Assembly (NCBI RefSeq): GCF_900450765.1
Contig: NZ_UGGU01000003.1
Location: 1,688,854-1,752,853, forward strand
Reading direction: 5' to 3'
DNA: 64,000 nucleotides
Source of the DNA: Fusobacterium necrogenes
GTDB lineage: Bacteria > Fusobacteriota > Fusobacteriia > Fusobacteriales > Fusobacteriaceae
Part shown: positions 27,475-57,035 of the stretch, one piece after another
Numbering within the stretch: the first letter of the stretch is position 1
Layout: every line of letters starts with the position of its first letter
The notes under the pieces: model-generated
The model's database searches: none
Told to the model about the DNA's origin: nothing
The model's input: only the letters and a program-made list of their open reading frames with translations
Translations under genes and position numbers: made by a program

Positions 27475-27489
27475 GTTCACTCCTTATCC

Positions 27490-27656
27490 AAGGAAATTAG
27501 AAATTCCTCTGTAAGTTAGAATATTGAGTAACTATGCTCATCTCACTAAAAATGCAAAACTCGGCTTTGCCTCAAACAGTTGCATTTTTTAGCGTTCGAT
27601 TTCGCTGTGTTCCTCTTATATTCTAACTTAATCGCCGTCATTTCTAAATTTCCTTA
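27490..27656. repeat. long-palindrome intergenic element, copy 1
   Basis: The core is CTAAAAATGCAA (27546-27557) paired with TTGCATTTTTTAG (27580-27592) around a small GGC/GCC hairpin, followed by AGCGTTCGATTTCGCT (27591-27606). Outside it, TAAGTTAGAATAT (27512-27524) pairs with ATATTCTAACTTA (27618-27630), and AGGAAATTAGAAAT (27491-27504) pairs with ATTTCTAAATTTCCT (27640-27654). It fills the gap between ispD and the nitrilase gene. The core recurs at 55549-55836 with different arms. Confidence 0.8.
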
Positions 27657-27680
27657 ATATACTCAAACTATAAATTGTTC

Positions 27681-54833: not shown

Positions 54834-55544
54834 ATGATATTTAGAAATGAATTACTTTGGTTTTGCATGCTCGTTATTAACTTTGGATTAATACTTTTTG
54901 CTTATAAAAAATTTGGAAGAATTGGACTTTATGCTTGGATACCAATTTCAACTATTTTAGCTAATATTCAAGTTGTTCTTTTAGTTGATTTATTTGGTTT
55001 TGGAACTACATTGGGAAATATTCTATATGCAGGAGGATTTTTAGTTACAGATATTTTAGCTGAAAATTATGGAAGAAAAGAAGCTCAAAAAGCTGTATAT
55101 TTAGGATTTTTCTCTCTTATTGCAATGACTTTAATTATGCAGATAGCTGTATCTTTTACACCTTCTAATATTGAAGAGGGAATTATAACATTTAATGGTG
55201 TTAAAAGGGTATTTGATTTTATGCCAAGAATAGTAATAGCTTCTCTTATCTCATACCTTATCTCTCAAACTCACGATATTTGGGCTTATGAGTTTTGGAA
55301 AAAGAAATACAGTGAGCCAAAACATATTTGGATAAGAAATAATGCTAGTACTATGGTTAGCCAACTTATAGATAATGCTTGTTTTACTTTAATAGCTTTC
55401 TATGGAGTTTATCCAAAAGAGGTATTAATCGAAATTTTCCTAACTACATATTTTATGAAATTCTTAGTAGCTGTATGTGATACTCCATTTGTATATATAG
55501 CTCACTACTTAAAAAAGAAAAATCTAATAGAACAGGTTATATAA
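54834..55544 (+). CDS. yhhQ: queuosine precursor transporter (VUT/YhhQ family)
   Basis: A 236-residue inner-membrane protein with about six helices. The family motif FLVTDILAENYGRKEAQKAVYLGF and the central HDIWAYEFWKKK, WIRNNASTMVSQLIDN block are typical. It imports queuine, preQ0 or preQ1 for tRNA wobble modification; the riboswitch supports preQ1. GGAGG precedes the ATG. No que biosynthesis gene is adjacent. Confidence 0.93.
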   Translation: MIFRNELLWFCMLVINFGLILFAYKKFGRIGLYAWIPISTILANIQVVLLVDLFGFGTTLGNILYAGGFLVTDILAENYGRKEAQKAVYLGFFSLIAMTLIMQIAVSFTPSNIEEGIITFNGVKRVFDFMPRIVIASLISYLISQTHDIWAYEFWKKKYSEPKHIWIRNNASTMVSQLIDNACFTLIAFYGVYPKEVLIEIFLTTYFMKFLVAVCDTPFVYIAHYLKKKNLIEQVI

Positions 55545-55548
55545 ATCT

Positions 55549-55836
55549 TTAAATTGAAATCAAAAATAAAAGTAACTACTCAGGCATTTCATCTTTTAAG
55601 AAGAAAACTAAGAATTGTTCCATATTCTAAGAAGTTGATTAACTATGGCTTATCTCACTAAAAATGCAAGGGTTAAGTCTTTTGACTTATTGCATTTTTT
55701 AGCGTTCGATTTCGCTGAGTTAATCTAACTTCTCTTCATAAATTACACAATTCTTTGAGTTTTCTTTAATTGACTAAGAACTGAGTAGTTACCAGTAAAT
55801 TTTCCTTTACTATTACTTTCTCCGATTTCAATTTAA
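55549..55836. repeat. long-palindrome intergenic element, copy 2
   Basis: The core CTAAAAATGCAA (55658-55669) and TTGCATTTTTTAG (55690-55702) encloses a TAAGTC/GACTTA hairpin; AGCGTTCGATTTCGCT follows at 55701-55716. Nested arm pairs: AGAAGTTGATTAACT (55630-55644) with 55718-55733; AAGAAAACTAAGAATTGT (55601-55618) with 55747-55766; GTAACTACTCAG (55572-55583) with 55781-55792; TTAAATTGAAATC (55549-55561) with 55824-55836. It fills the gap between two convergent genes. Confidence 0.85.
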
Positions 55837-55841
55837 GAAAT

Positions 55842-57035
55842 CTATTCATCTATGTAGTTATCAAAATATCCTTGAATTAAGATAATTGGTGTTCCTTTAT
55901 CTCCACTTCCAGAAGTTAAGTCACAAAGAGATCCTATTAAGTCAGTTAATCTTCTTGGAGTAGTTCCTTGAGTTATCATTTGTCCTTTTAAGTCAGAATC
56001 TTTACTCTTAATAGCTTCAGTTACAGCTTTTTGTAATTCTTCTCCTTTTAAATCAGCTAAATCATTATCAGCTAGATATTTTAATTTTATTTCATTTGGA
56101 GTTCCATCTAATCCATCAGTATATCCTGGAGAAACAACAGGATCAGCAAGTTCCCAAATTTTTCCAACTGGATCTTTAAATGCTCCATCTCCATAAACCA
56201 TAACTTCAATATTTTTTCCAGTTTTATCTTTTAACATTTTTTGAATTTTTACAACTAATTCTTTGCAATCACGAGGAAATAATTTTACACTATCTTCAGT
56301 TGCTTTGTTTGAACCTAGTAATCCATAATCAGAATTATATCCAGAACCATTTATAGAAGTAGTTAGAATTTCATCCATTCCATAAACTATTTTAGCTCCA
56401 GCTTTTTTTAGTAATTTTTTAGTTCTCATACGAGTGTGGATATCACAATTTAATACACAATCAGTATATTTTAAAATAGCAGTAGGATTATTAGCAAAAA
56501 CAACTTCAACTTCTGCCCCTTGTTCTCTAATAAGTTGTGAATAATACTCTATATAGTTTACTCCTGTAAATACGTGAATTGGATTTCCAAATTTTTCAGT
56601 AAACTCAGCTTCAGTTAAAATATCTGTCCAAGGATTAACTCCTTTTTCATCTAGTAAATCGTAATCTATAAAATGGTTTCCAACTTCATCAGAAGGATAA
56701 CTAAACATTAAAACTATCTTTTTAGCTCCTCTTGCAATTCCTTTTAAGCAAACAGAAAATCTATTTCTACTTAAAATTGGAAATATAAGTCCTATTGTAT
56801 TCTCTCCATATTTCTTTTTTACATCAGCTGCAATATCATCAATTGTAGCATAGTTTCCTTGAGCTCTAGCTACTATTGATTCAGTAATAGCCACTACATC
56901 TCTATCTCTTAATACAATATTTTCTGATTCAGCAGCAGCTAAAACAGCGTCTACTGTAAATACAGATATGTCATCACCTTGCTTAATAATTGGTGCACGA
57001 AGTCCTCTTGATATAGTTCCTACTAATCTTCCCAT
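55842..57035 (-). CDS. CofE-like (coenzyme F420-0 glutamate ligase family) protein
   Basis: A 397-residue protein. The N-terminal part (ISRGLRAPIIKQGDDISVFTVDAVLAAAE, LRDRDVVAITESIVARAQGN) and GDGAFKDPVGKIWELADPVVSP match the F420-0:gamma-glutamyl ligase fold; most of the length is specific to a long bacterial branch. Fusobacteria are not known to make F420 and no cofC, cofD, cofG or cofH is here, so another amide-ligase substrate is likely. It is a single-gene unit, convergent with the queuosine transporter. Confidence 0.75.
   Translation of the reverse strand: MGRLVGTISRGLRAPIIKQGDDISVFTVDAVLAAAESENIVLRDRDVVAITESIVARAQGNYATIDDIAADVKKKYGENTIGLIFPILSRNRFSVCLKGIARGAKKIVLMFSYPSDEVGNHFIDYDLLDEKGVNPWTDILTEAEFTEKFGNPIHVFTGVNYIEYYSQLIREQGAEVEVVFANNPTAILKYTDCVLNCDIHTRMRTKKLLKKAGAKIVYGMDEILTTSINGSGYNSDYGLLGSNKATEDSVKLFPRDCKELVVKIQKMLKDKTGKNIEVMVYGDGAFKDPVGKIWELADPVVSPGYTDGLDGTPNEIKLKYLADNDLADLKGEELQKAVTEAIKSKDSDLKGQMITQGTTPRRLTDLIGSLCDLTSGSGDKGTPIILIQGYFDNYIDE

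What the first reader, a model, noticed from the sequence alone, without database searches (positions are those of the whole stretch)
55549..55836. Copy 2 of the element: 288 bases, four nested arm pairs, between convergent genes
Here the arms are longer (four separate paired blocks of 12-18 bases, the outermost ending six bases before the next gene's stop) and the central loop has its own TAAGTC/GACTTA hairpin. Size therefore varies (167 against 288 bases) around a constant core. Its place between two convergent genes and that of copy 1 inside an operon argue against a plain terminator role. It may be a non-autonomous mobile element processed as a folded strand, a double-stranded RNA precursor or an RNase III target.
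Basis: partly seen in the sequence, partly recalled or inferred. Interest (0 to 1): 0.85.

Follow-up and report, generated by a model that had tools for sequence, protein, structure and literature searches.

The report
Nested hairpin elements that hop and replace
This 288-base stretch is one of about thirty copies, in this Fusobacterium-like genome, of a small non-coding mobile hairpin; the hairpins nest inside one another and swap places with gene terminators, and most copies carry a tip structure that recurs across many unrelated bacterial phyla.

Summary
55549-55836 is a long imperfect palindrome (RNA fold -84.2 kcal/mol, z -8.8; DNA z -9.2), and about 30 structured relatives lie between genes in the same genome, with strong compensatory change. 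It is absent from the orthologous site of a 96-97% identical relative, which has a plain 36-bp terminator there; two other relatives carry a different subtype in the opposite orientation. So it is mobile.

The element is layered. An "A" element with IS66-type ends (GTAACTACTCAG; elsewhere clean insertions with 8-bp target duplications) sits inside the outer arms of a "B" element, whose complete versions carry the inverted repeat of an IS1182-family IS. A-type copies insert; B-type copies replace a stem-loop (8/11 against 1/12, p=0.003), as reported for IS1272, an IS1182-family element.

16 of 22 sampled copies, though not this one, end in a 22-nt cap (AAACTCnnTTCnnTCARACAGT) that recurs on covarying 8-bp stems across many bacterial phyla. 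No Rfam family or paper was found for it. Wobble pairs are rare and equal on both strands, favouring a DNA-level hairpin. There is no HUH enzyme in the genome; RNase III or dsRNA roles are untested. What the cap does is unknown.

The parts
55549..55836 (+). whole layered hairpin element (focal copy)
   Evidence: fold z -8.8 RNA, -9.15 DNA; absent from G009 ortholog
55549..55561 (+). outermost left arm TTAAATTGAAATC (B/C-type outer arm)
   Evidence: exact inverted repeat with 55824-55836; same arms next to other B copies at C3:1271.8 kb and 891.6 kb
55824..55836 (+). outermost right arm GATTTCAATTTAA
55572..55583 (+). left terminal repeat of the nested A element, GTAACTACTCAG (IS66-type end)
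   Evidence: 12/12 complementary to 55781-55792; identical to ends of IS66-family IS in G004, G010, G011, G005
55781..55792 (+). right terminal repeat of the nested A element, CTGAGTAGTTAC
55603..55617 (+). A-type arm, outer helix (left)
   Evidence: pairs with 55748-55764; helix 1 of the alignment, 6/9 pairs with change on both sides
55748..55764 (+). A-type arm, outer helix (right)
55630..55644 (+). A-type arm, inner helix (left)
   Evidence: pairs with 55718-55733; helix 2, 8/11 pairs with change on both sides
55718..55733 (+). A-type arm, inner helix (right)
55660..55669 (+). core stem, left strand AAAAATGCAA
   Evidence: helix 5, compensatory changes in 4 pairs
55690..55699 (+). core stem, right strand TTGCATTTTT
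55670..55689 (+). loop of the minority type GGGTTAAGTC...GACTTA (6 of 22 copies; the other 16 have the AAACTCnnTTCnnTCARACAGT cap or a close variant)
55695..55716 (+). conserved one-sided motif TTTTTTAGCGTTCGATTTCGCT
   Evidence: present with few changes in 23 copies
54834..55544 (+). upstream gene, queuosine precursor transporter
   Evidence: TIGR00697 E 2e-64
55842..57035 (-). convergent gene, F420 ligase-like (PF01996)
27487..27660 (+). copy 1 of the same family (A-type), with a variant of the universal cap, between two tandem genes
   Evidence: empty site in G009 (97.6% right flank) and G011

Best explanation
The 288 bases are two nested, non-coding, palindromic mobile elements of one structured family. 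The inner A element is a miniature element with IS66-type ends, moved in trans by IS66 transposase with 8-bp target duplication. The outer arms belong to the B type, whose complete copies carry the inverted repeat of an IS1182-family IS and which, like IS1272, move by replacing a stem-loop (a terminator or another hairpin element) instead of duplicating a target. Repeated insertion of hairpins into hairpins builds the layers; deletion of the tip may shrink them again. The long hairpin exists mainly as DNA structure (target and product of the replacement reaction), and its survival beside genes depends on sitting after stop codons and out of divergent promoter regions. Shown: family, structure, covariation, mobility, nesting, matching ends, target duplications at other A copies, stem-loop exchange. 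Inferred: which transposase acts, the order of the layers at this site, the direction of the exchange at this site, and DNA-level function.
For: Mobility: G009 (flanks 96-97%) has a plain terminator instead of the element; G010/G011 have a B element in the opposite orientation; G005 has a plain terminator. A-type ends: GTAACTACTCAG matches IRs of IS66-family elements (NF033517 TnpC; same IR with the TnpC C-terminus just inside it in G011). Clean filled/empty pairs carry 8-bp duplications (L137/L141 AATAGTTT 8/8; L121/L165 AAAAAATA 8/8; L127 and L041 7/8). B-type: IS1182-family IS (NF033551) has IR GGGGCTGTTGCAAATT, also found at ends of B-type and related copies in G000, G009, G018, G006. Stem-loop in the sister allele for 8/11 B against 1/12 A loci, Fisher p 0.003. 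Nesting at orthologous loci: A centre exchanged for a whole B element in L053/L119 and L032/L433. Literature: IS1272 targets terminator hairpins, deletes them, leaves no duplication, inserts in both orientations, with repeated independent insertions (PMC5678879, PMC4923244). G.T and A.C mismatches about equal.
Against: The focal A element has no target duplication (5/8), and its outer arms lack the GGGGCTGTTGC part of the IS1182 repeat. This genome has no IS66 transposase and only a decayed IS1182 copy, so no active partner is left here. Some 'plain' stem-loops in relatives look like collapsed B arms (G005 site GAGCAAGT...ACTTGCTC; G010 at L042) or bare IS1182 repeats, so the exchange may partly run from element to short hairpin. 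Three of 11 B loci show no stem-loop. Many copies have no recognisable terminal repeats of either IS. Counting the focal copy as B-type is a choice.
Confidence: 0.7

Rival explanations
1. Palindrome collapse: long hairpin elements are ancestral at these sites and the short terminators in relatives are what is left after the tip is deleted (hairpin-cutting nuclease or replication slippage). No stem-loop replacement happens.
For: G005 terminator at the focal site and the G010 allele at L042 look like B arms without their centre; L145 and L416 hairpins look like bare IS1182 repeats.
Against: At L057 the same AGAGAGGG stem-loop is in both G009 and G011 while G000 has the element; at L132 the sister stem-loops in G010 and G000 are unrelated to element arms; A-type copies show target duplications, which deletion cannot make.
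Confidence: 0.2
2. The element is mainly a functional RNA (bidirectional terminator, mRNA stabiliser or RNase III substrate) kept by selection on transcripts.
For: 30/30 copies intergenic, none between divergent genes, many just after stop codons; relatives have a terminator at the site; very stable RNA fold.
Against: No terminator pattern found in it; orientation mixed in tandem pairs (14 sense, 9 antisense) and opposite at the same locus in relatives; G.T no commoner than A.C; copies differ between close relatives.
Confidence: 0.15
3. An IS200/IS605- or REP/RAYT-like element moved as single strand by an HUH (Y1) transposase.
For: Hairpins with one-sided conserved motifs; inverted pairs of caps in a Bacteroides genome recall REPINs.
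Against: No Y1 transposase in G000, G004, G006, G010 or G018, which hold from 9 to at least 45 matches each; of 30 Y1 loci in other cap-rich genomes only one had a cap within about 1.5 kb.
Confidence: 0.05

Closest known systems
IS1272 / IS1182 family stem-loop-replacing transposition (PMC5678879, PMC4923244)
   Same: targets terminator-like stem-loops, removes them, no target duplication, both orientations, repeated use of one site; Fusobacterial IS1182 repeat matches ends of B-type relatives
   Different: here non-coding 100-300 bp palindromes, not the IS; the elements are themselves hairpins and so become targets; IS1272 itself was not compared by sequence
MITEs of IS66 type
   Same: IS66-family terminal repeat GTAACTACTCAGC and 8-bp duplication at several sites
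   Different: the inside is not an IS66 remnant but a structured hairpin shared with elements that have other ends
Long palindromic intergenic repeats (ERIC/RU-1 127 bp, RU-2 168 bp; PMC2759123)
   Same: size, long imperfect palindrome, intergenic, multi-copy, non-coding
   Different: other lineage; nested layers and two transposase types seen here; no sequence relation tested
BOX/RUP/SPRITE of pneumococcus (review PMC10969869)
   Same: small elements that insert into one another; SPRITE is terminator-like
   Different: no common capped core reported there
REP/REPIN with RAYT (PMC3733652)
   Same: palindromic intergenic repeats across phyla, located after genes, inverted pairs
   Different: REPs are 20-40 bp with GTAG/CGTC tags; here 100-300 bp, a 22-nt cap, no Y1 transposase

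Membership tests
MITE (bacterial miniature inverted-repeat element) | short, non-coding, multi-copy | tested here: met
   30 copies at E <= 2e-6, 100-300 bp
MITE (bacterial miniature inverted-repeat element) | empty orthologous site in a close relative | tested here: met
   G009 at 96-97%; also L137/L141, L039/L435, L051/L432
MITE (bacterial miniature inverted-repeat element) | terminal inverted repeats shared with an autonomous IS | tested here: met
   12-bp repeats at 55572/55781 = IS66-family ends
IS66-type MITE | 8-bp target duplication | tested here: not met
   focal copy 5/8; met at L121 and L137 (8/8) and L127 and L041 (7/8)
IS1182/IS1272-type stem-loop-replacing element | stem-loop in the element-free allele, no duplication | tested here: met
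   G009 AAAGAGGAGCAAAATTGCTCCTCTTA at the focal site; 8/11 B loci
IS1182/IS1272-type stem-loop-replacing element | terminal repeat GGGGCTGTTGCAAATT at both ends | tested here: not met
   absent from the focal copy; present at least at one end in L057, L128, L130, L135, G018 and G006 copies
IS1182/IS1272-type stem-loop-replacing element | movement depends on IS1182 transposase | not testable with these tools
   needs an assay
REP/RAYT | Y1 (RAYT) transposase in genome | tested here: not met
   PF01797: 0 in G000
IS200/IS605-derived element | HUH TnpA in genome or beside copies | tested here: not met
Known RNA family (Rfam 15) | match to a curated covariance model | tested here: not met
   no match up to E 1
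Intrinsic terminator | G+C-rich stem followed by T run | tested here: not met
   0 found on either strand; simple pattern scan only

The most novel reading that the evidence does not exclude
The tip of most copies, a 22-nt cap AAACTCnnTTCnnTCARACAGT on a covarying stem of fixed length (8 bp) followed by a T-rich 3' bulge, is a bacteria-wide structural DNA module, an unnamed superfamily comparable in reach to REPs, that recurs inside lineage-specific long hairpins in many phyla and is recognised by a factor not yet known.
Probability: 0.45. Interest if true: 0.87.

Novelty: new variant of a known kind. Interest (0 to 1): 0.68.

Why it matters
It would link three things usually treated apart: MITEs, long intergenic palindromes and transcription terminators. 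Elements that are hairpins and replace hairpins would explain Russian-doll repeats and fast turnover of terminators between close species. The recurring cap, if confirmed, gives one handle on orphan palindromic repeats in many phyla and a concrete ligand with which to look for the protein that recognises them.

Tried and rejected
HUH/Y1 partner: absent in own genome and copy-rich relatives, and not beside caps elsewhere. Rfam: no match. Phage or plasmid carriage: no match of the focal element in plasmids or phages; only 13 stretches with the cap in 2.9 million viral contigs. A common neighbour gene of the cap across phyla: none in 504 ORFs within 2.5 kb. Papers holding the cap string: none found. 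Kink-turn reading of the cap's other strand: did not fit on paper, dropped. Integron attC resemblance: considered from memory, not tested.

Full report
OBSERVATION. The 288 bases at 55549-55836 form a long imperfect palindrome between a queuosine-transporter gene (stop at 55544) and a convergent F420-ligase-like gene (55842-57035). The fold is far outside shuffled controls as RNA (z -8.8) and as DNA (z -9.15).

FAMILY. A DNA search of the genome finds many dispersed relatives. A covariance model from 22 of them finds 30 places at E <= 2e-6 in this genome and copies in 21 of 61 searched genomes: all 12 of the genus, several other genera of the family, a few beyond; two genomes reach the scoring limit of 45. 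Pairing is kept through real covariation: 104 cells with changes on both sides against 33 in shuffles and at most 17 when partners are slid. Two arm subfamilies, A and B, share the core.

DNA OR RNA. In the Fusobacterial stems G.T mismatches (15) are no commoner than A.C (14); in the cross-phylum set they are 6 and 11. A structure selected as RNA on one strand should tolerate one kind more. This favours constraint or correction at DNA level; it does not exclude an RNA role, and correction of quasi-palindromes alone can also create compensatory changes.

PLACE. All 30 copies are intergenic: 23 between tandem genes (14 sense, 9 antisense), 7 between convergent genes, none between divergent genes (genes there are simple ORF calls). 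Some lie between what look, by eye, like genes of the purine operon.

EMPTY SITES. At the focal site G009 (96-97% identity) has a plain terminator; G010 and G011 have a B element in the opposite orientation; G005 and more distant species have plain terminators. For other copies, 32 filled/other comparisons were set up. A-type copies mostly show a clean empty site, several with an 8- or 9-bp duplication (L137/L141, L121/L165, L039/L435). B-type copies stand where the sister allele has a significant stem-loop in 8 of 11 loci, against 1 of 12 for A (p=0.003); the one A case has a 352-bp gap and is unreliable. At L057 two relatives share the stem-loop, so the element is the newcomer there. Elsewhere the direction is open, because some short stem-loops look like collapsed elements.

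ENDS AND PARTNERS. Long A copies, including the focal one, end in GTAACTACTCAG. The same repeat, often at broken contig ends as expected for multi-copy IS, bounds IS66-family elements in G004, G010, G011 and G005; in G004 and G011 the TnpC C-terminus is seen just inside it. Some B copies and the G018/G006 elements carry GGGCTGTTGCAA-like sequence at their ends, which is the terminal repeat of an IS1182-family IS, intact in G009 and G011 and decayed in this genome. IS1272, of that family, is reported to replace stem-loops, terminators included, without target duplication (PMC5678879, PMC4923244). That matches the B-type behaviour seen here.

NESTING. In L053 (this genome) against L119 (G009) flanks and outer A arms are the same, but what is an A centre in G009 is a whole B element here; at L032/L433 it is the other way round. 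A third structure, D, sits in one strand of the core stem at L025 and L059 here, and at the G009 ortholog of L040. The focal copy is A inside B/C outer arms. Layering therefore happens repeatedly.

THE CAP. In 16 of 22 copies (not the focal one, which has a GGGTTAAG loop) the core stem ends in AAACTCnnTTCnnTCARACAGT or a close variant. In 104 non-redundant copies the 8 flanking positions pair at 84-95% (shuffled 25-45%) with all four pair types at each of these positions, then pairing stops. The inner 2-bp stem covaries (GC/GC 98, AC/GT 14, GT/AC 5). All 20 genomes tested (chosen because they had a hit) contained it, 18 in more than one copy and up to 52, allowing one mismatch, against a single reversed-pattern hit. 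It is rare in viral contigs. No Rfam family and no paper with the string were found; subscription literature and ISfinder were not searchable.

VERDICT. A real, mobile, modular hairpin family. The mechanism is well supported for A (IS66) and reasonably for B (stem-loop replacement by an IS1182-like enzyme); the history of the focal copy is inferred. The function of the cap is unknown and is the most interesting open point.

Noticed in passing
G077 (Bacteroides sp., reached through L216): Most of about 35 caps lie as inverted pairs 180-430 bp apart (e.g. C2:41390+/41603-, C40:178429+/178639-), recalling REPIN doublets.
   Followed up: no
L025/L058, L059 (C3:~891.5 kb, ~1239.1 kb) and L431 (G009): A multi-hairpin structure 'D' (CCAATAGTAG...AATTTTGG) replaces about 17-20 nt of one strand of the core stem in both A- and B-type elements.
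   Followed up: partly
G005:C23 ~5.3 kb; G010 C55 at the L042 site (L429): Short terminator-like hairpins that look like B arms without the core, possible collapsed elements.
   Followed up: partly
L391 (G000:C3 ~866.2-868.2 kb): Decayed IS1182-family IS with intact-looking GGGGCTGTTGCAAATT repeats, next to a tRNA-like sequence.
   Followed up: no
L034/L118 and L048/L404: Same site in two close species holds an A element in opposite orientations.
   Followed up: partly
L170 (G004:C64) and many G004/G010/G011 contig ends: Multi-copy IS66-family element with GTAACTACTCAGCTA ends that breaks these draft assemblies.
   Followed up: partly
L044 (C3:~1101.2 kb, right flank): GGGACTGTTGTAAATTCTTAAG, resembling half an IS1182-type repeat, lies just outside an A-type copy.
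   Followed up: no
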